NCBI RefSeq assembly: GCF_000003815.2
Contig: NC_049985.1
Location: 23,655,496-23,719,495, forward strand
Reading direction: 5' to 3'
Source of the DNA: Branchiostoma floridae
Lineage: Eukaryota; Chordata; Leptocardii; Amphioxiformes; Branchiostomatidae
Length of the DNA: 64,000 nucleotides
Both the position numbers and the translations under genes were made by a program. This document shows, in pieces, positions 10,498 through 62,400 of this stretch. A model generated the notes under the pieces. The model saw only the letters and a program-made list of their open reading frames with translations, searched no databases and was not told the DNA's origin. How positions within the stretch are numbered: position 1 is the stretch's first letter; every line of letters starts with the position of its first letter.

Positions 10498-12987
10498 GTC
10501 AGTTTTGTTTTTGGCGACGCCTCAAGGGCGAGCCAAATTGTATATTATTGTTTTACTTGTCTTGTCAGATCCATCCGTCAAGGCTTCCTGTGCATTCCAT
10601 CATTTCTTCCTAATAACTTTTTCATTCAAACTTTATCATATGATTATCTCTTTCTGGGAAGTTTCTTTTAGCCTTTTCTATCTGTTTCAGAATTGGGTGG
10701 ATGAATATCTACAGTGGGATCCTGATAACTATGACGGACTAGAGTCGCTGAGGGTTCCCTCCCACATGATGTGGACTCCGGACATAGTCCTATATAACAA
10801 GTAAGGTTTGATATTTCGTACATAGTACAATTACAATTAAGCGCATTTCGTCTTATACCATATTTGAGGTACAAAATTGAGTCTCTTTGCCCTGCGGGGT
10901 CTGTATCTGTATTTGTATCTATATAGCCGGTATAACCGACCTTCAGCGTAACGCATCAGCTTCGCAGGCAAGCGGCGCGGCAGCAGCTGGTTGTATTACA
11001 CTGAAGGACCCGTCACACCTAACATTTGCACATCTACCTGCAAGTGTTCTTTGAAACTACCAGAGAAGATGCCCCTACTGTACTTGATGATAACAAATAC
11101 CACTCTATGATAGTTCTGGGAAAATACGAATTTTTGAACACATCAACCCTAGGTTTAAGTAACTCTTGTACCTGAAGTCATGTCCGTTTTGACGCCTTCC
11201 TCCAGCTGTTCCTATCTGCAGTCTGGGCAACTGATTCTTAGTTCAGTGATATGTTTTACACCTGTGTCTTTTATTTAGAATTCTCAGACATTGTACTTAA
11301 TTGTACGTAAACTTACGTACATTGTACGTAGTCTTTTAATACGCTCGGAGTTTGCCAAACTCCGAGCGTGAAGACTACGTACAAAGTTTGTTTGCAGTTG
11401 GATCATTAGGCTATGTGTTAGATAAATAATTGTGTGTTTCTATCATAGCGCCGACGACGACTTCTCCAGCCGTATGGAGACCAACGTGGCGCTAGACTTC
11501 ACCGGACACATCTACTGGGACTCCCCGGCCATCACCAAGAGCTCCTGCGAGGTAGACGTCTCCTTCTTCCCGTTCGACCGACAGAAATGCCGGCTCACGT
11601 TCGGTTCCTGGACGTACAGCGGTAGTCAGATCGACGTTTGGAACGAATCCTTCACGGGAGACCTGACGGACTACGTACGGAACGCCGAGTGGGAACTTGT
11701 GGGCATGCCGTCGAGACGGAACCTCATAGTCTACGGATGTTGTCCGGATCCGTTTCCGGATGTGACTTTTACAATCATGTTGGAACGGAAGTCTCTGTAC
11801 TATATTTTTAACCTGATTCTCCCGTGTATGCTGATATCCATGTTGGCTCCCATGAGCTTCTATCTACCAGCGGATTCTGGTGAAAAGGTGTCTCTGGGTA
11901 TCACAGTGTTGTTGGCGCTGACGGTCTTCCAGCTAGTGGTCGCTGAGGCACTCCCGCCTTCCGAGAACATCCCTCTGATAGGTATGTGTTCTTAAGCGGT
12001 GTACAGAAAGTGCGAAATGGATCGAAATGGGATAATACAGAAAGTGCGAAATGCAACGAAATGGGATATACAGAAAGTGCGAAATGGAACGAAATGGGAT
12101 ATACAGAAAGTGCGAAATGGAACGAAATGGGATATACAGAAAGTGCGAAATGGAACGACCTGGAACCTTTTCTATGGTATTAAAACTAAGTTTAGTTAAT
12201 GATGTTTACCTTAACCAAAGGGAAACCTATTGTGCTTTTGCTCAGTTTCTTCTTTCTGTTCTTCTTCTCCAAACAAATCAAGCTAAATGTAAGAGAAGTA
12301 CTCTTTCCCTTTTCTGCAGGAAAGTACTACATCGCCAGCATGACGTTGATGTCCCTGTCCACGGGGATGTCGTGTTTCGTCATGAACATCCACCACTGCG
12401 GTCCGGAAGCGCGTCCCGTCCCCCGATGGATGCGCTGGCTCATCCTGAAGTGGCTGGCACAGATCATGCTCTTCCGTGACCTTAGCATCACGTGCTGCAA
12501 GAACGAGAAAAAGGTCAAAAGTCGTGGGTCACCGCGCATGGGCAGAAGCGGGAGTCACACTGGGTGCGACGACACCACCAGCTGTGCCCGAGAGCGCGCA
12601 TGCTCACTAGAGGAAACGTTTACCAAGAGATCTGATAACGAAGTGCACTTGCGTTCTTCTCTGCGCATGCGCTCGGAGGACATGCTAAACGGCGGAGCAA
12701 CGACGCCATCTGCACGGAACAACACGAACTGCAGGATGGGAGTCGGATACGAACTTGTTGAGCTGAAGCCGCCTGAAGTGATGGTGGCGAACAAACTGGA
12801 AAAAAGACTGGATAGAATCGAGAAGGAGGTTCGGTACGTCACAGATCGCCTCCGTAAGAAGGACAAAGAGAACTCAGTGGCGGCGGAATGGCAGAGAGTA
12901 GCTAAAGTGGTGGATAGACTGTTCCTGTGGCTCTCGCTGCTCACCGCTATTGCCGTCAGTCTGCTCATACTGGGCTCGTACGTGTGA
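10453..12987 (+). CDS. Nicotinic acetylcholine receptor subunit, alpha9/alpha10-like (5'-incomplete)
   Basis: Four exons, 10453-10497, 10691-10800, 11449-11981 and 12320-12987, join in frame to 451 residues ending at TGA. The product is a Cys-loop cation channel subunit of the plasma membrane, gated by acetylcholine. Visible landmarks, counted from the first visible residue: the conserved loop D and loop A tryptophans ([18 protein letters not shown]); the Cys-loop pair at about 85 and 99 with exactly 13 residues between; a vicinal CC at about 149-150, which marks an alpha-type subunit; M1 at about 170-191; M2 at about 197-218 with Glu before and after the pore helix (cation-selective pattern); M3 at about 232-254; a long cytoplasmic loop; M4 at about 425-447. 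The [22 protein letters not shown] and [11 protein letters not shown] motifs resemble alpha9/alpha10 more than alpha7. The 45- and 110-bp exons match the classic receptor exons 3 and 4. Signal peptide and first exons are missing, so the full gene extends upstream. Confidence 0.93.
10691..10800 (+). CDS. nAChR exon, 110 bp, loops D and A
   Basis: Starts after ctgtttcag and ends at a gtaagg donor. Encodes [16 protein letters not shown] at its start and WTPDIVLYN at its end, including the tryptophan equivalent to alpha7 Trp55 and the WxPD motif at loop A. The last codon is split after two bases. Confidence 0.93.
11324..11382. repeat. Short near-perfect fold-back in nAChR intron
   Basis: gtacgtagtctt and cgctcggagttt on the left are answered by aaactccgagcg and aagactacgtac on the right around a 3-base loop, with 6 versus 2 unpaired bases between the two paired blocks. 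It lies 67 bp before the next exon. Confidence 0.85.
11449..11981 (+). CDS. nAChR exon, Cys-loop through M2
   Basis: 533 bp between tctatcatag and a gtatgt donor. Encodes the Cys-loop ([15 protein letters not shown]), loop B (GSWTYSG), loop C ([12 protein letters not shown]), M1 and M2. One N-glycosylation sequon, NES, lies near visible residue 117. The second loop C aromatic, a tyrosine in alpha7, is phenylalanine here. Confidence 0.95.
12004..12165 (+). repeat. 33-bp minisatellite in nAChR intron, five copies
   Basis: The word cagaaagtgcgaaatg starts at 12004, 12038, 12071, 12104 and 12137 (spacing 34, 33, 33, 33). It fills almost half of the 338-bp intron and begins 23 bp after the splice donor. 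All three plus-strand frames stay open through it because the unit contains no stop and its length is a multiple of three. Confidence 0.92.
12320..12987 (+). CDS. nAChR last coding exon, M3 to M4
   Basis: Begins after ttttctgcag, completing a split glycine codon, and encodes M3, a large cytoplasmic loop rich in charged and Ser/Cys residues, an amphipathic helix before M4 ([13 protein letters not shown]) and M4, ending LGSYV-stop. The cytoplasmic loop is the only part without clear family similarity, as is usual for these subunits. Confidence 0.93.
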
Positions 12988-15332: not shown

Positions 15333-16083
15333 GAACATGTTCTCAGTTAAAAACAGAAATTCTATCACACGATGTGTGGAGATTCCACACAATGTGTGGA
15401 GATTCCACACGTCGTGTGGAAACCTGCACACATCGTGTGGAAACTCCACACGTCGTGTGGAAACTCCACACATTGTGTGGAAACTCCACACATTGTGTGG
15501 AAACCTGCACACATCGTGTGGAAACCCCACACATCGTGTGGAAACCCCACACATCGTGTGGAAACTCCACACATCGTGTGGAAACTGCAATCTGTCCTAT
15601 GGCGATTGATGAGCAGCGCGTGACGCTTGTCCATGTAAACAGCCCCCGTAACACACGGCGGCATCACATGTCACGTGTTGCCTCCAGGGTTGGGCGTACG
15701 GCAGACATTGGGCAGTTTGCGGCATCACTGAATGTGCCGATGTCGTAGGCAGCCCACTTTCGCTTTGCAGTAGGTCAGGGGTCATATGCGAATGCCTGAG
15801 ACCTTTCCCACCCTTGATTCAACCCACGCCACACTCGTCTGGTCACCAGGGTTCACGGCTGTGCGCTGCAGTGTGATGTGTTGTGGTGCGCCATGAGAGT
15901 CGCAGTGGGTTTGTGTGAACCGAAAACTATCCTAGGCTACTGTCCTAGGGGAATCATCATATGTCGCGCAAATTCCCTCCTATGAACCGGCCTTAGTGTG
16001 TATGTTCTACCTTTGGTCTTTTGTATGTTCTACATGTAACGTTAGGTATAATCCATCAAAAGAGTGCTGTATTTAACTAAACA
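15333..16083 (+). mobile_element. Palindrome-array element, longer copy
   Basis: This segment is repeated in the opposite orientation at 24829-25353; the match starts at gaacatgttctcag and stops at taactaaac, and flanking sequence differs, so the two are copies of one mobile unit. It starts with an array of eleven palindromic words of the type ccacacatcgtgtgg at 19-21-bp spacing (15365-15590), followed by unique sequence. No terminal inverted repeats and no protein are visible. Compared with the other copy it keeps about 95 bp (around 15619-15713) that the other lacks. Class not established; small non-autonomous rolling-circle elements can carry such arrays, but the diagnostic ends are not seen. 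Confidence 0.75.
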
Positions 16084-24223: not shown

Positions 24224-24344
24224 ATGGTGTCATAAGGCCTGGTCCTTTGTTATAAGCACCAAATAAAACCAACAAATGAGTGAAGCGAACAAGGGGTGGT
24301 TTTATAAGGTGGTAATAGCAAAGGACCAGGCCTTATGACACCAT
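24224..24344. mobile_element. Small MITE with perfect 26-bp inverted ends
   Basis: 24224-24249 and 24319-24344 are exact reverse complements (26 of 26), e.g. atggtgtcataaggcctg on the left. The outermost bases can be read as a TA duplication, so a Tc1/mariner-type origin is possible. Related words appear at about 59330-59395 in an IK intron. Confidence 0.85.
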
Positions 24345-24828: not shown

Positions 24829-25353
24829 AGTTTAGTTAAATACTGCACACTTTTGATGGAATATACCTAGAACATACATAAGACCGAAGGTAGAACATAC
24901 TACGACCGGTTCATAGGAGGGAATTTGCGCGACATATGATGATTCCCCTAGGACAGTAGCCTAGGATAGTTTTCGGTTCACACAAACCCACTGCGACTCT
25001 CATGGCGCACCACAACACATCACACTGCAGCGCACAGCCGTGAACCCTGGTGACCAGACGAGTGTGGCGTGGGTTGAATCAAGGGTGGGAAAGGTCTCAG
25101 GCATTTGCATATGACCCCTGACCTACTGCAAAGCGAAAGTGGGCTGCCTACGACATCGGCACATTCAGTGATGCCGCAAACTGCGCTGCTCATCAATCGC
25201 CATAGGACAGATTGCAGTTTCCACACGATGTGTGGAGTTTCCACACGATGTGTGGGGTTTCCACACGATGTGTGGGGTTTCCACACGATGTGCATTGTGT
25301 GGAATCTCCACACATCGTGTGATAGAATTTCTGTTTTTAACTGAGAACATGTT
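24829..25353 (-). mobile_element. Palindrome-array element, shorter copy (inverted)
   Basis: Reverse-complement copy of 15333-16083. It has only about five or six ccacacgatgtgtgg-type palindromes (25218-25325) instead of eleven and lacks about 95 bp of internal sequence near 25192. Its right end reads gaacatgttc, its left end gtttagttaaatac. Confidence 0.75.
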
Positions 25354-43582: not shown

Positions 43583-43815
43583 CTTAAAAGCAAGGATTTA
43601 AATGCATATCGCTCATACCCTCTAAAAAATACATAATGTCCAGAGTTTCGCAACAGGAACCATATCATCACAATAGCCATACTACGAGATAGAGTTCATT
43701 CATAGTCATACACATTTAATAAGACTTTCTGCATATACAATGCAGACGGCCTGAAATTTGACCTCCAAAAACTACACTAGACAACAAAAATAACAAAACA
43801 ACAATTTAAGAACTG

Positions 43816-44305
43816 ACTTACATGCCAATAAGTTCCAAATACAAAAAGTAGTCTGGAAAGGACAGAGCAGTGTACTCTCGGTAGTCAAACATGACATACA
43901 AGTGCATCCCGTACAACTACTAGTACTAGTACTAGTACTGCTACTGTCTGTCATTCAGTACAACAAGTACTCTGTAACCCTTTGTAATGAGTGTTCCCAA
44001 ACATCTAGTTGTACAGGTGTATAAAAATAACAAAACTTAAAAAGTTAAGAACAACGGACTTACATGTCAAGAAGTTCCAAATACAGAAAATAGTCCGGAA
44101 AGGACAGAGCAGTGTACTCTCGGTAGTCAAACATGACATACAAGTGTACCCCGTACAACTACTAGTACTAGTACTACTACTACTACTGTCTGTCATTCAG
44201 TACAACAGGTACTATGTAACCCTTTGTAATGAGTGTTCCCAAACATCTAGTTGTGCAGGTGTATAAAAATAACAAAACTTAAAAAGTTAAGAACAACGGA
44301 CTTAC
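43816..44305 (-). repeat. Two degraded 242-bp duplications of an exon end with its splice donor
   Basis: The junction acttacatg(c/t)caa(t/g)aagttcc occurs at 43816, 44058 and 44300, exactly 242 bp apart each time. On the minus strand each is the end of an exon followed by gtaagt. In the two lower copies the upstream part of the exon is broken by an in-frame TAG and by an expanded (actagt)n / (tac)n tract (43919-43943, 44159-44185), but about the last 75 bp before the donor stay close to the intact copy. Confidence 0.9.
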
Positions 44306-44574
44306 ATGTCAAGAAGTTCCAAATACAAAAGGTAGTCCGGAAAGGACAGAGCAGTGTACTCTCGGTAGTCAAACATGACGAGCAAATGAACCCCGCACAA
44401 CAGGTATTCTGTAACCTTGCGTAATGGGGCGTTCTCAATCATGTAGTTGTACAGGTGTATAGTTAGGCGTTTTGCCCCCCAGGGAGATAGTGTGGGAAAA
44501 TCACGGACAGTAAACAGTGGTGGTATCACTACCAGGATGTCCTGGATGTTTGGCATTGGGTATCCTGTTCTCAT
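44306..44574 (-). CDS. Unrecognised exon, possible first coding exon of the minus-strand gene
   Basis: An open frame of about 89 codons starts at an ATG (MRTGYPMPNIQDILVVIPPL), preceded directly by an in-frame TGA, and runs to a gtaagt donor after YLLYLELLD. It contains WGAKRLTIHLYNYM and VMFDYREYTALSFPDY. I do not recognise the protein. It is well formed for an exon: no stops, balanced composition, consensus donor. The donor leaves two bases of a codon, which is the phase required by the RBPJ exon at 42508-42567, so it could be an alternative RBPJ N-terminus; it could equally belong to another gene or a mobile element. If the donor is not used the frame ends at the TAA inside gtaagt. Confidence 0.45.
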
Positions 44575-53469: not shown

Positions 53470-56400
53470 GTAAGTGTTTCTTACAGCTATATAGTATAGA
53501 TATTATGCAGATGTAAAGTAAACTTTGATGAGAAAGGTAAAGGCCAAATGTAGACCGAAACTTGACGGGGTAATGCAATGGTTTGTTATAATTTTTGGGG
53601 GAGGGGGGCAATTTATAATTTTTACCATAGGCCCTATGCATTCATGTTACCGTATCTGTGCAGCTTGCATATTATGCAAGGAAATCATGTGTTTTATAAA
53701 GCATAGCAGGGTTCTCCCCAGAGAGTGGAATAAGGGAGGCCCTCCACTATACTCTCAGCCAGCTCCACTATACTATTTTTCAAATTTAGTGTGTTTCTTC
53801 CCTATTTTCTTTGTTAGTTTTGCTAAGATTAATGACAATTCACAGATTTTTGTACCAAGTGGCATCACTTTTCCAGTCAGCATTGTCTGCAAAAACTTGT
53901 GAATGAGCAATGATCAAAACAACAGTAGTTTTGCCACTTCACAACAAAGGAATAACAACAGTATATTATACTTGTAGTATTTGACACCCTCTGTCATTGC
54001 AAAATGAACCCATGTTCATGAAAGTGCAGCGCGTTGGTGCGGGTTATTTTTGCCAGCCCCTCCACTATACTAAAAAATTCTGGGGAGAACCCTGCATAGG
54101 AATGCATGGCAGTATCACCTATCTGACCTTAGTATTGTTTTTAACCGAAACCATGACACAAGTGCAACACACTATCCAATTATGAAAAGTGCCCAAAACA
54201 CTGTGGAATTCACTAAAATTATGCACAAGATTCTTTTGAGTTAAGCTAGAACTTCATGCAAACCGTCAACCAACCATAGAGTTTAGACAAGGCATATTTC
54301 TAAGCGTTTCTACGCGTGATATAATTTTTTTTAATTTTTATTTCTATTTCGAAGCATTGAATGGACTCATAGTAATAGTGAATAGTAATACCATCAGAAG
54401 AATAAAAGGCGTATTGTATTCGATAGCATGTGGGCTACTCTTCTGTTTCTCATAAGATTGCATATTTCAAACAAACGCTCTAGAACCTTACTTCGCTCAT
54501 TAACTGACATTATCACCAAACGGTTTGAATGTGTAAGTCTCCAGACGGATAGCAGAAGCGAACATAGGCGAAATACTGTAAATGCAGAAAATTATGATCG
54601 CGGTGGATTAATTTTTGCTGTTTTTGCCGTGACCACTTCACCGCGACCTTCAAACCATGGCGAACATTTTTCTATTACTTGGTATTAGACTGCAGTCCAT
54701 GGTGTTACCGCGAACTTAAAACCACAGCGAAAAGTCCATTTACGCGCTACCGTGAAATTAAATCCCCGCGAACTTATAACATTTACAGTACTATCCGGAT
54801 GGTACCCGGGCTAAACCAATGCACCTTATAGCAAAAATGAATTCCGAGCAAACACACAAACAAGCATGATTTTGTTCCTCAGGAGAAGGAGAGCTGGCGT
54901 TCTCCAACCCCCTCCCCCCGGAGGCGATGGAGGACGACGGGGACCACGATCACGAGCCGGCGCTGACCAATGAGGACTTCCGACGGCTGCTGATGACCCC
55001 CCGCGATGCTCCGAACTCCGCCCCTCCATCCTCCTCCAGTAGTACTGCTGTCAGACAGGACAGGGAGTAAGTCTTCTTCTACAAGCAGATGTTGGGGGGA
55101 AAGTCAGTGTTTTCTGAACCATACTCTACATTAGATTACCCTAACATTTTGGTAAAGTGCTGCTAGAAAAAAAGTAGATCAGAAAAAATTCAATTTTATA
55201 CCTAACAGTTGTGTTAAGATTGAGTAAGTCTATATTGCAGAGAGTGTGGTTTTAAGGTTAATAAAGGCTTGTACAAATGTATTTTTCTCACTTTTTTACC
55301 ACTGATTTACGTGTACTAGTAGATTACAAATTGGATGGTGGCCTGGGTACATATAGCTTATAGAGGTTTTTGTGTACTTTGAACTAATCCCACTGCATTA
55401 TGCTGATCTACTAACCTGGTGGTGACCCATGGTCAAAATTTAAGTTCTCAACTCCAATTTTGGGTGCACAAAGATGCACATACATCCAGTATTTCCAGCC
55501 CTTTATTCATTGTCGAGTATTGATGACTAGTATTAATGCACATTCTTATCTTTTTTTTTAGCTTGGGTGACCAGTACAATGAGGACATGGATCCCAACGA
55601 GCGGCGTAGGAGGAAGAAGCGTTACTATGCCAACCTGAAGAAACAAGAGGAGGACAAACTGGCCGAACTGGCCCAGAAGTACAGAGACAGGGTAGGGAAA
55701 CCACTTTAGTTACAGTGATATTTGAAAATCTGTATGAATTTTAAACAATATTTTTCTGCATTCTGCAACCATTTGTAAGATTGCTGCAGCAGTGATCTAT
55801 ATAAGATTCTTGATTCCTACAAGATATGAATTCCAGTTAATGGAGGTCAGACATCCAGTTAGAATATTACACAAACCAAAATGAATCAAGAAACTACAGT
55901 GAAACTTCTCTAAGAAAACAACCACGGGAACCAGTGTAAAGTGGTCTTTTTAGACAAGTGGACTTCTTATGCAAAGAATTTCAAAGTAAAAACGATAAGA
56001 TAGGACAGACACAATGATTTCGAAGTTAAGTCTTTAATTCCACAGACCTGTACATTTGCACATGAGAAACAATCACTTTTTAGCTAAACTAAAAGTTCAT
56101 GTCCTTTAATTCATTGACAAGCGTGCAAACATGCAAGGTTTAGATGCATATACATGTATTGCTATGTCAGTTGTAGTTAAATTTTCCAAAGTTTAAGTAA
56201 GACATTTCAGATAATATCCACTACCCTTCATTAGTGACATTCATTATAAACTCAGTCACTGTTGAAAGACAGTGTTACCTGAAATGACACTTTGGAAGGA
56301 AAATTTAACCAGTTTATTGATCTATTTTGGTTTATGTAACATTTTAGAGTTAATGATTCCAACTCTTTTTGCAGGCAAAGGAGCGTAGAGAAGGCACGAA

Positions 56401-59400
56401 CAAAGATTATGAAGAGACAGAGATGGTCAGTACCACCACTAACTATAGGGCAGTGGCTCCCAATGCACAGCCGTAAGTATGCATATACCTTTAACTAGTA
56501 CAGAATAATGTAGATTGTACTACGGTTTGTTGTAGTTGTACTATCAGTAAGCTATGAGAAGATCCGATGATTTTTTTTACCTCATGTTTATACTTGGCAG
56601 ACTTAATCGATGACATAGCCTGGTATCCAGCCGCATTATACTAGCTCCCAAGTCTCTTCTGTCTTCTCTGCAAGTAATAGACAAAAAGTGCATTGTATTC
56701 AAGCTGTATCATTTAGTTTATCTGTTTAACGTAAGAAAAGGTATTGTTGTATCAGGTCCATTTCAAGTTATTTTCTGTCAATGTATCATGAGTCTCAAAA
56801 TGCTCCGAAAATTATGCATCACTGCCATACTACGGAATTGTTTGACCACTTTTATTAGATTTAGAATACAGGAGAAACCTACTTTCTCCTTCAGTGAAAT
56901 TATCTCACAGCAAAAATAGCCGAATTTACAGTACATTTACGTTATTTCACTTATTGCTTACTGTAGGGTTGACACTGCTGAGCGCCGACGTCAGTTGATC
57001 CAGGAGTCTAAGTTCTTGGGAGGAGACATGGAACATACTCACTTGGTGAAGGGGCTGGATTATGCCCTGCTGCAGAAGGTAAGACTAACTCTTGGGAGGT
57101 GACATGGAGCATACTCACTTGGTGAAGGGGCTGGATTATGCCCTGCTGCAGAAGGTAAGACTAACTCTTGGGAGGTGACATGGAGCATACTCACTTGGTG
57201 AAGGGGCTGGATTATGCCCTACTGCAGAAGGTAAGACTAACTCTTGGGAGGTGACATGGAGCATACTCACTTGGTGAAGGGGCTGGATTATGCCCTACTG
57301 CAGAAGGTAAGACTAACTCTTGGGAGGTGACATGGAGCATACTCACTTGGTGAAGGGGCTGGATTATGCCCTACTGCAGAAGGTAAGACTAACTCTTGGG
57401 AGGTGACATGGAGCATACTCACTTGGTGAAGGGGCTGGATTACGCCCTGCTGCAGAAGGTTAGAATAAGATCCAATCACACAGTTATCACCTCCATGAAA
57501 AATGGAGGTATTATTTTTGTTGTGTGTTTGTGTCTGTCTATATACACTCGGCACAAAAAGTTTGGAATATAAACTTTGGTGTATCATATTTCCGTTATTT
57601 ATGCATCAATTTCAACGTATTATATATCAATAGAAAGCTTGTGTGATATTCTTTCCTATGGTATCAAACTTATTATGATTGTAAACACATGAAACGAGCA
57701 CAAGGCGTGCTTACGTGAGTGGATCACGAAAAAAAAGTGCCCAAATTCCCCTACTTCTGTTCAACACTGCATCGTCCTGTTGATATTGGCGCGTGTGTCA
57801 CTGGTCCAGTTAATCCTCTTTTCACCTCACATTTTGTATACGGAACATACAAGGTTTTAGTGCACTTAAGTAGAGTCCATGTGCCCTTTTGATAGTTGGA
57901 TGGCAGAATCTAAGCGTGGATGCAGCAAGGAGAACCGCACGCTGACACGACAAGAGTAACTTTCGGCATTTGGTGGTGGTGGAGACAGCGTCATGGTGTG
58001 GGTGGTATAACCACCATAGGGTAAACAAGACTCGTCATCATTCCAGGCAAATTAATGTGGTGACATATAGGGACACCATCCTCCATCCAGTAGCAATGTT
58101 TTACCTCTTCAATATTGGACCAAATGCCATTCTGCAAGATTACAACACCAGTCCACACAGAGCAAGGACCATTGGATGCTGGAGCACAGTCTTAGGGTGG
58201 AATAGCCTTCCTACGGCTTATGGCTAGCACTCGATTGATCACCTCTTGCCATGGTTCAGATTTTTTGCTTGAATAAAGAGTAATAGTAGCTTTGATTGAC
58301 ATGTCCTGTTTATTCAACTTGCTTTCATTCACAAGTCAATACTGACAAAAATGAGCAGAATGGAGTGATTGACTTTAGTAGGGTAATTTTGGCACTTTAT
58401 CTTTAGGATCCCCTGTACGTAAGCGGGCCTAGTCCTCGTTCCATGAATTTACACTCAGAAAATACTGTACTCAGATATGCTAAAAAGAAACTTGGATGTT
58501 CTGTATACCAAACGTTAGGTGATAAAAGGATTGATGGAATCATTGTCACCCGCGGCCATAACAACGGTTGAACCGGACGATACAGTTTTGAACAGAAACA
58601 GGGGAATTTGGGCACTTTTTTTTCGTGACCCACTCACGTTAGCAGGCCTAGTGTATGTTCAATGAGTTAACAATGATAATGAGTTTGATACGTTTGGAAA
58701 GAAAATTATGCAAGCTTTCTATACATATATAATATATTGAAATTGATGCAGAAACAACATAGATATGATCAACTGAAGTTGATATTCCAAACTTTTTGTG
58801 CCGAGTGTATATCTTCGTGTTTCCAGGTATTTGTGGTCATGATATTTTTTGTGTGTATAGAGATTGGAAAGATGAAAGTCAAGGTTGAATTGGGGCTCCC
58901 TGGTGTGTGACATTGCTACTGCAGCAGAATGTTAATTTTTGTTGTCTTTTGTCCTAAACATACTATGTATTTTGGTGGCAGGCAACTTTTGATGTAAGGA
59001 AGAATTTGTGTAGCTTTGGGCCCCCTAGGAGCTTGTGCTGGAACTGCAGCAGGGGTGTTTTTGTAAAGGTATTTTAAGAAGGATAAAGAAGCCACAACCA
59101 ATGTCCATGGTTGTTAAAAATGTGAATAGGAAAGTCACAAATTTGGTGAAGTATTTCAGGGACTAAGAATATGTGTGTGTTTACCATGTACAGGTTCGCA
59201 GTGAAATAGCAACAAAGGAGCGTGAGGATGATGACTTGGACACTATTGTGATGGAAAAGAAGCAGGAAGAAGAAGAGGAGGAGATGGAGTTCAAGACCAG
59301 GATGGGTAAGAAAATCCATCATCTCATCTTCGCTCACTCGGTGGTTTTATTCTGTGCTTATAACAAAGACTCAGGCATTATGACACCATATACACTTAAG

Positions 59401-62400
59401 GGGATGACCAAACCTGACATTTAAGAAAGTATTGAAGGAAAAGGTAGGTCTAAAGGACTACAACTTGCTAGCCGCCATGCTAGATAGAGATGCATGGTCG
59501 GACATCGTTAATGGCACCTCATATGAGGATGAAATGAACTGAACTGAACACCTCGGGCGGTTCATTCACCCTTAAATGAACAACCTGTCACACAACCTTT
59601 GCACATCTAGCTTCAAGCTTCAGGAGGCCCCTATACTGATAGGTACTTAGTGGCAACAACTTTCACCTTATACAGGCCTCAAAATTAATTTTTTTCCCTA
59701 CTGTCCCAGCATTGTCCCAAAAATAAATGTCAACTGTCCCGAAGTGAGGATGGACTGTCCCAACCCTATTTTCATAAATTATGTATTACAACAACTGTAA
59801 GTCAGAGTACGCACGCCTGACAACCGCGGGCCGTGGGGAGATCGGACATTCTGATGTTGATTCGTTGATTATTTTCCTATATAATATTGTCCCAAAAGTG
59901 TCCCAAAAAGATTTTTCAGTTGTCCCGGCCTAAATTTTAGTGGCCCCGGGACATCGGGACATAGTTAACTTCGAGCCCTGACTTATAAGATGTGTGGTTC
60001 AATATGCAAAGCATTTTCTGGAACAAAGAAGAAGCCCTCCTGATTTTGCAAGATAATACTTTGAGACTTGTACCTTATAACTTGTGAATAGAAATTACAG
60101 TCAGTTAATTCTCCATAAGCAAACAGTTAACGCCTCTGATCAAATATAAATGTAATGACAGATGTAGATGTTGACATGAAGCATGCATGTTTGTAAATGT
60201 TGTTTTCTGTATGTTGTGTCCATGTGTCTAGCACGCAGCGTGTACCGTACCCTGTTCAAGATCAAACCCCCCGAGCGGAATGAGCTGTTCCTGCCGGGAC
60301 GGATGGCGTACGTGATCGACTTAGAAGACGAGTATACGGACACGGACGTGCCGACAACACTTATCCGGAGTAAGGCAGACTGTCCTAGTCTGGAGGTAAG
60401 CTTTTAACTTTTTTTTTTTTACTCAATGGTCACCTCGTAACAAGGCCTGAAGGCCACTCAAGGTTACGGGTTACATGATTGGAACTGTAACAGCAACTCT
60501 TCGCCCTAGGTCAGAAACATCATGATTGAGACCAGCCCAATTGCTTACTATGAGTGAGGACTAACTGACCCAATAGGCGAAGCAGGAGTTACGAGGGCTG
60601 CTCGGGAGATTCCCTACCCCTATTTTGGCCAGAATGGTTTGATCCGCTCGGGTGGATGTTTGCACATGTGGCGGGTTCTTTAACGTGCATAGGGTATGGC
60701 TCTCCCCATACACGGGACCTCCATTTAACGTCCTATCCGAGGGACGACCCATTTTTTCACTTGAGTAAAGTGGGAAAAGTCGTGTAAAGTGCCTTTCCCA
60801 AGGGCACAAGACCGGCAACATGGCAGGCGGATTCGAACCGGCGACCTCTCGGTCACGGGCCGAATACACTACCACTGTGCTACGCGGCCCCACCTGATAT
60901 GTTCTGCAAAAACAGAGATATCGTAACTGCAGTAGATTTGTTTCTTTGTCATTGTATGCATCCACAGTTATGTCAATATCCTTGATGCAGGATATACATG
61001 TAAGGTGGAAGTGGTGTAAAACGATACTTGGAGAATAGGAAGTATGGTTCAGTGTTCATGATTTTTTTCTATTTGTGTTTACAGTCCCAGACCACCCTGA
61101 CGACCAATGACATTGTTATCAACAAGCTGACTCAGATCCTGTCCTACCTCAGACAGGGAGTCAGGGGCAAGAAACTCAAGAAGAAGGACAAAGGTAATAC
61201 CCAACGTGTAGTACTGCAAGTGTTTGCAGAAAATGTCTTAAGGGCAAATAATTATGATTCTTTCGACAAATGGTCTACAATCCAACAAGAAGAAAAAAAT
61301 TTTGTACCAGTACATAGTACCTTTACACACCCCTAGCCCCGCCTATTGTAAGCTCCTCACAATTTAGCCCCTGGCTGTGAACAAAGAGTAGTTGGCCTAC
61401 CCAATAGTAATGAAATAATACTTATAAAATTACTGACCTGATGAAACTATTCTTGATTCCTTCCAAAAATAATTTCATCAGGTTCACGTTTCGGTGTCTG
61501 ATGGACAAAGAAACGTAAGCAAGTAAGTTCAACCTGGTTGTGTAAGAATTCTCCTTTATCCTATATTCTTATTCCCCATCAGGAAAGGGAAGAGAAGAGA
61601 AGCCCCACAGACTGCCTGGTGGTGATGACATCTTCGGTGATGTGGGAGATTATATCCCCCAGGTGCACAAGTCTAAGGACAGGCACTCACACAGCCACTC
61701 TCATGACAAGAAACGCTCCAGCTACTTCGAGAAACCAAGGACAGAGGATGAGGTAAATACAGCAAGTTATCTTTATTGATAATATCAGCGCGTTCTTTAA
61801 TTTTTGCCTGATTAAAAAAAAAAACAAGAAAATTTAAACCTTAAGAGATGGCCAACATGACGAGAAAAGATCAACATGGAAAAATGCGTTGCGTGGTAGT
61901 CTTGCTTGTACTTGTAGAAGTGACATTGAGGTAACCATTACAGGAGAAACCACTTAATTGCACGGCCTATAACAATTTGCCAGTGAATTTCATGCAACTA
62001 TCTGGCTGATGCAATAATGCGAATTTATCTAGATGGACCGCACTGGTTTGGGGTTTTGGATTCCGTGCAGTTAACAGAAGTGTGCGATGAACTGGCTTCT
62101 ACTGTACTGTAAAAACAGCTGCTGCTGAGCAGACTGTAAAACTAACTTAAAAGTAGCTGTAGAAGTAACACTAGTGTGATAGCCTTGTCTACCATACTAG
62201 TGTCAGTTTCTACACTTCTTGAACAAAGAAAATAAGAGCTTCAAGCCTTGTCTCATTCTGTCATAGTGATGCCAAGTATTGCCGCAAAATTTGTGGTATC
62301 TAATTTAAAAGATTAGACATCTAGGGGTCCATCTTGGTTTGAGCAGATAAAATAGATTTGTCTGGCTATGCAGCTTGCAATGTTCAGTACAAACCTGGTG

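What the first reader, a model, noticed from the sequence alone, without database searches (positions are those of the whole stretch)
57016..57470. IK: end of exon 5 and its 5' splice site tandemly duplicated at exact 76-bp steps
Six donor sites in a row follow the same 64 exonic bases. Comparing the exon with the five copies I see four variable coding positions (GGA/GGT, GAA/GAG, CTG/CTA, TAT/TAC) and all four are synonymous, though the copies should be free to drift as intron. That suggests the array is turned over by unequal exchange, so that any copy may have been the exonic one under selection. The last copy has a weaker donor, gttaga.
Basis: partly seen in the sequence, partly recalled or inferred. 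Interest (0 to 1): 0.8.

Follow-up and report, generated by a model that had tools for sequence, protein, structure and literature searches.

The report
Amphioxus exon-end "mirage" repeat array
In the lancelet gene for the splicing protein RED/IK, the end of one exon and its splice site are repeated six times in a row, a known lancelet oddity called a mirage, and comparison with other such arrays suggests that the intronic copies changed mostly while they, or their parents, were still part of a working exon.

Summary
Window 57014-57469 holds six 76-bp units (65 nt of exon end plus 11 nt of intron) without indels; five donors read GTAAGA, the last GTTAGA. The gene is RED/IK. Each of the five downstream donors would give the same early stop.

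The kind is known: a "mirage", a minisatellite across an exon-intron boundary, reported in amphioxus Adh3, globins, troponin C and PGBD5 (PMC3087553, PMC3902484; passages read). The window's own genome holds arrays that fit the published BflGb9 (157-bp step), BflGb6 and Adh3 ones, so the host is almost surely amphioxus.

Pooling seven array edges in six genes, 20 of 28 changes among intronic copies are synonymous, 8.0 expected, P 4e-7. So the differences mostly arose under exonic selection. Whether by unequal exchange, the exon acting as master, or inter-allelic seeding is unresolved. No transcript or second haplotype was seen.

The parts
56967..57078 (+).
   Evidence: PDB Protein Red residues 139-173, E 2.8e-16; Pfam RED_N E 5.3e-20; frame and splice sites
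57014..57469 (+). tandem array, six units of 76 bp, unit = 65 nt exon end + 11 nt intron start
57079..57089 (+). first (normal) 5' splice site GTAAGACTAAC
   Evidence: U1 duplex -9.5
57090..57165 (+). unit 2, first intronic copy
57166..57393 (+). units 3, 4 and 5, identical to each other
57394..57469 (+). unit 6, last copy: private TAT>TAC and the divergent tail with the weaker donor GTTAGAATAAG
   Evidence: U1 duplex -5.6
57079..59193 (+). intron that holds the five extra units; the next exon starts at 59194 (GTTCGC...)

Best explanation
This is a mirage: a minisatellite that arose by tandem duplication of the end of an exon together with its 5' splice site in the amphioxus RED/IK gene, and whose extra units now lie in the intron. 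The normal first donor is probably still the one used, so that the mRNA is unchanged. The array is young or recently homogenised: units 3-5 are identical and the differences sit in its outer units. The differences among units were mostly acquired while the sequence, or its parent, was exonic, because new units descend from the exonic unit or exchange with it faster than intronic drift accumulates; units that stay in the intron then decay. Shown: the array, the gene, the likeness to published mirages found in the same genome, the synonymous bias among intronic copies in pooled arrays. Inferred: use of the first donor, and unequal exchange or slippage as the motor.
For: Exact 76-bp array over a RED/IK exon edge. 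Published amphioxus mirages have this anatomy (PMC3087553 abstract and passages; PMC3902484 passages), and three arrays that fit the published BflGb9, BflGb6 and Adh3 mirages are in the window's own genome. Published RT-PCR on Adh3 and globin mirages suggests regular splicing (PMC3087553). Synonymous changes among intronic copies 20 of 28, 8.0 expected, P 4e-7; over all units 37 of 49, 13.7 expected, P 1.4e-13. A simpler count without Adh3 gives 19 of 26 (P 4e-7 to 2e-5) and 36 of 47. Copies-only rates per site: BflGb6 synonymous 0.37, non-synonymous 0.04; SORD-like 0.39 and 0.07; IK 0.12 and 0.
Against: IK alone does not prove the exonic-history part (two of two silent among copies, P 0.05-0.10). 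8 of 28 copies-only changes are non-synonymous and three intronic copies carry frame-breaking indels. The pool is small and partly chosen from published cases; changes on one copy's lineage were counted as independent; 22 of the 28 come from two arrays (BflGb6 and SORD-like, 11 each). In the kinase 5' array the two intronic copies do not differ at all in the exonic part, so it says nothing. No transcript was seen, and the host's name comes from array likeness and recall, not from a tool.
Confidence: 0.75

Rival explanations
1. One burst of amplification of an ancestral exon end, then free neutral drift of the intronic copies; in IK two differences are on the exon's own branch and the other two are silent by chance.
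For: The IK data alone allow it: two of two silent among copies has P 0.05-0.10. Intronic copies elsewhere do carry non-synonymous changes and indels.
Against: Pooled copies-only changes are 20 of 28 synonymous against 8.0 expected, P 4e-7. Units 3-5 of IK are identical, which points to later turnover or a later expansion.
Confidence: 0.14
2. The extra donors regulate the gene: downstream donors make transcripts with a premature stop, and RED/IK, itself a spliceosome protein, adjusts its own level by choosing among them.
For: Donors 1-5 are identical (-9.5) and every downstream donor gives the same early stop. That splicing factors often self-regulate through such transcripts is recalled.
Against: Published Adh3 and globin mirages are reported not to disturb splicing, and mirages occur in unrelated genes. 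No transcript data here.
Confidence: 0.03
3. An intron or exon in the making: a unit becomes an exon of its own through cryptic acceptors in the unit, as proposed for globin mirages.
For: The unit contains AG sites, one of them CTGCAG just before the donor; model in PMC3087553.
Against: No transcript evidence; the exon edges on both sides are conserved and the intron position is unchanged.
Confidence: 0.04
4. Assembly artefact: the unit number, or the whole array, was made by the assembler.
For: Units 3-5 are identical.
Against: Units 1, 2 and 6 each differ from the identical middle ones, and arrays that fit published mirages are recovered in the same genome.
Confidence: 0.04

Closest known systems
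Amphioxus mirages: Adh3, globins BflGb6 and BflGb9, troponin C, PGBD5 (PMC3087553 and PMC3902484, passages read; the 2002 Adh paper, PMID 12087171, is not held and was not read)
   Same: Tandem repeats that span an exon-intron boundary with splice signals in the units; edge units differ from homogenised inner ones
   Different: A further gene (RED/IK); here all six units are the same length and all six keep a GT donor
Intron gain by tandem duplication of AGGT-containing exon sequence (e.g. a potato gene, PMC4974935; listing and start of abstract only)
   Same: Tandem duplication of exonic sequence with splice signals in the unit
   Different: Here an existing intron is lengthened; no new intron position is shown
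Ordinary minisatellite turnover by unequal exchange or slippage
   Same: Fixed step, identical inner units, divergent outer units
   Different: The unit is part coding, and its changes are biased to synonymous ones in the pooled arrays

Membership tests
Amphioxus mirage | Tandem repeat unit spans an exon-intron boundary | tested here: met
   65 nt exon + 11 nt intron per unit
Amphioxus mirage | Lies in an amphioxus gene | tested here: met
   Gene is RED/IK; the same genome holds arrays fitting published BflGb9, BflGb6 and Adh3 mirages.
Amphioxus mirage | Homogenised inner units, divergent edge units | tested here: met
   units 3-5 identical; units 1, 2 and 6 differ
Amphioxus mirage | Regular mRNA splicing despite the repeats | not testable with these tools
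   no RNA data; only the consequence of each donor was computed
Amphioxus mirage | Length instability between haplotypes or cells | not testable with these tools
   one assembly, one place in it
Intron gain by tandem duplication | A new intron position | not tested
   No orthologous gene structure from another lineage was compared; nothing here calls for a new intron

The most novel reading that the evidence does not exclude
In amphioxus, ends of exons are not always fixed pieces of DNA but rotating stocks: recurrent exchange within exon-edge arrays keeps passing units through the exonic position, so that purifying selection is felt by the whole array and intronic copies evolve with a coding-like ratio of synonymous to non-synonymous change.
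Probability: 0.4. Interest if true: 0.68.

Novelty: new member of a known kind. Interest (0 to 1): 0.5.

Why it matters
Mirages are natural experiments with several near-identical splice donors in competition, and a proposed source of new introns. If intronic copies keep a coding signature, turnover of the array is faster than mutation and could be measured from single genomes, and the picture of an exon as a single inherited segment needs amending in this lineage. RED/IK adds a clean case, without indels, in a conserved spliceosome gene.

Tried and rejected
Chance was rejected; an assembly artefact is unlikely but not excluded for the exact unit number. A second mirage in the window at 43786-44401 (242-bp units) was considered: on the minus strand it has a donor-like AT|GTAAGT, but the adjoining frame matches no PDB chain or Pfam family at E 0.001, and by eye its copies differ non-synonymously in that frame, so it is not claimed. 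The flanks of eight RED/IK exons were compared with the window; only the exon ending at 57078 has tandem copies (one other exon's flank has a dispersed 38-nt match at 24285). Microhomology at the duplication ends (TAAG in the exon near 57009 and in the tail of unit 6) is too short to interpret.

Frequency: of 76 loci other than IK itself (L004-L079), 5 show near copies that overlap the matched exon: L008, L012, L014, L031, L065. 32 of the 76 came from families chosen because mirages were published in them (globin 9, ADH_N 23), with 4 of the 5; 3 of these 4 fit the published genes. Of the 44 from families not so chosen (30 kinase, 14 Aldedh) 1 does (L065). 26 of the 30 kinase loci have open frames of 300 codons or more and so few exon edges, some loci overlap, the loci are the best 30 of 129 kinase matches, and the scan needs 30 nt or more at 80% identity within 1 kb; so this is not a rate.

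The pooled test used seven array edges in six genes. The Adh3 3' edge was left out because its exonic part is too short to align. BflGb9 has one intronic copy, and the two of the kinase 5' edge are alike, so these two give no copies-only events; the copies-only events are BflGb6 11, SORD-like 11, IK 2, kinase 3' 2, Adh3 2. One gap column in the furthest BflGb6 copy, two inserted bases in the middle SORD-like copy and four deleted bases in the furthest Adh3 copy were left out of the count of changes. The ends of the compared stretches were set by motif. The intronic flank of the first SORD-like unit may reach beyond the array, which would inflate its intronic rate. A search meant to confirm the assembly's size in print gave only a listing, from which nothing was read.

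Full report
What is there. The stretch 57014-57469 is six head-to-tail units of exactly 76 bp without indels. Each unit is 65 nt of exon end plus 11 nt of intron start. The first unit is the real end of a coding exon (56967-57078) whose 37 residues match Protein Red of the PDB (E 2.8e-16) and Pfam RED_N (E 5.3e-20). Joining the exons found in the window gives an open RED/IK frame from 54885 to 61193 (with the exon end at 59305), with GT donors and AG acceptors. The intron runs 57079-59193. It also holds an element with long inverted repeats (arms 57540-57781 and 58571-58812, 84% complementary).

Donors. Donors 1-5 are identical, with a U1 duplex of -9.5 kcal/mol; the last, GTTAGA, has -5.6. 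Any of the five downstream donors gives the same premature stop after VRLTLGR. Which donor is used cannot be tested here. Published RT-PCR on Adh3 and globin arrays of this type suggests regular splicing (PMC3087553, passage read).

What kind of thing. The literature describes 'mirages' in amphioxus: minisatellite-like tandem duplications of exon-intron boundaries in Adh3, globins BflGb6 and BflGb9, troponin C and PGBD5 (PMC3087553, abstract and passages; PMC3902484, passages; the 2002 Adh paper is not held). No tool named the host. The window lies in a genome of 513,431,437 bases in 431 contigs, which from memory fits the B. floridae chromosome assembly. I looked there for the published mirages. 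Of 9 globin loci, L008 has a second copy of an exon's 3' edge at a 157-bp step, and L012 has three copies of an exon's 5' edge at 150-158-bp steps. Of 23 ADH_N loci, L014, whose exon matches class III ADH best, has repeats of about 59 bp on its 5' side and of 33 bp (seen as 66-bp steps) on its 3' side. The published steps are BflGb9 157 bp, BflGb6 150-160 bp and Adh3 10-72 bp. The host is therefore almost surely amphioxus, and the IK array is a mirage in a further gene.

More cases. Two more genes with the same structure appeared: a sorbitol-dehydrogenase-like gene (L031, acceptor side) and an AGC-type kinase (L065, copies of both edges). The searches of the held library that bear on mirages and tandem duplication listed no paper whose title or abstract start names mirages in RED/IK or in these two genes. 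That library lacks most subscription papers, and I read passages of two papers only.

Testing the interpretation on IK. Two of the four (57024, 57033) separate the exon from all copies and may have happened in the exon itself. The other two (57063, 57069) vary among intronic copies, and both being silent has P 0.05-0.10. There is one more hint, found after the fact: the last unit differs from the identical middle ones at 3 of 11 intronic positions but at 2 of 65 exonic ones, P 0.020. The IK data alone are suggestive only.

Pooled test. I pooled seven array edges in six genes (IK, BflGb9, BflGb6, SORD-like, kinase 5' and 3', Adh3 5'). Each change was compared with the chance of being synonymous given its base, its substitution and its CpG class in the same exon. 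Over all units 37 of 49 changes are synonymous (13.7 expected, P 1.4e-13). Among intronic copies only, where the exon's own evolution plays no part, 20 of 28 are synonymous (8.0 expected, P 4e-7). Leaving out any one array gives at most P 1.6e-4, when BflGb6 is left out. A simpler binomial count without Adh3 gave 19 of 26 among copies (P 4e-7 at 25% expected, 2e-5 at 32%) and 36 of 47 over all.

Rates. Among copies, synonymous sites changed about 9 times (BflGb6) and 5 times (SORD-like) as often as non-synonymous ones; in IK no non-synonymous site changed. The intronic parts of the units changed at 0.13 per site in BflGb6 (between the two classes), 0.43 in the SORD-like array and 0.27 in IK (above both). 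In the kinase 5' array the exonic part of the two copies is identical, while 4 of 24 intronic sites before it and 2 of 95 after it differ.

Against this. 8 of 28 copies-only changes are non-synonymous. Frame-breaking indels occur in the furthest BflGb6 and Adh3 copies and in the middle SORD-like copy. 22 of the 28 events come from two arrays. The sample is partly chosen from published cases. Changes on one copy's lineage were counted as independent. The two kinase 3' copies lie about 350 and 480 bp downstream rather than strictly head to tail, and one of them follows an acceptor-like AG, so they might be exons of another form of the gene; without them the count is 18 of 26 (P 1.5e-6).

Reading. 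Most differences among units arose while the units, or their parents, were in the exonic position; once stranded in the intron they drift. Three mechanisms give this: unequal exchange that moves units in and out of the exonic place; the exon acting as master of successive duplications, so that copies are snapshots of its past; or unequal crossing-over between divergent alleles. The identical middle (units 3-5) and different outer units of IK agree with ordinary minisatellite turnover, as reported for BflGb6. I cannot separate the three with one haplotype.

Verdict. The mechanism of turnover and the use of the donors are open.

Noticed in passing
L065 (G000:C19:9613497-9613910), locus 1182-1550 and 1819-2398: A kinase gene (best PDB match ribosomal protein S6 kinase alpha-1) has copies of both edges of one exon: two in tandem before the 5' edge and two about 350 and 480 bp after the 3' edge. 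In the compared stretches all exon-copy differences are synonymous.
   Followed up: partly
L031 (G000:C2:5232121-5232285), minus strand: A sorbitol-dehydrogenase-like exon has three intronic copies of its acceptor edge. At one codon the exon has TTT (Phe) where the copies have TAC or TAT (Tyr) and the neighbouring paralogue L033 has TAC, so the copies seem to keep an older state of the exon.
   Followed up: partly
57540-58812: An element with long inverted repeats (242-nt arms, 84% complementary) sits in the same intron, 71 bp after the array; its kind was not tested.
   Followed up: partly
43786-44401: A 242-bp unit repeated 2.6 times with a donor-like AT|GTAAGT on the minus strand; possible second mirage, but no protein match.
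   Followed up: partly
15366-15589 and 25216-25292: Arrays of the same 20-bp unit (GTGTGGAAACTCCACACATC) in opposite orientation about 10 kb apart, with similar flanking open frames in the ORF list, so perhaps an inverted duplication.
   Followed up: no
11426-12987: A neurotransmitter-gated ion-channel gene (Pfam Neur_chan_LBD and Neur_chan_memb), with a 33-bp tandem array at 12002-12158 just after an exon.
   Followed up: no
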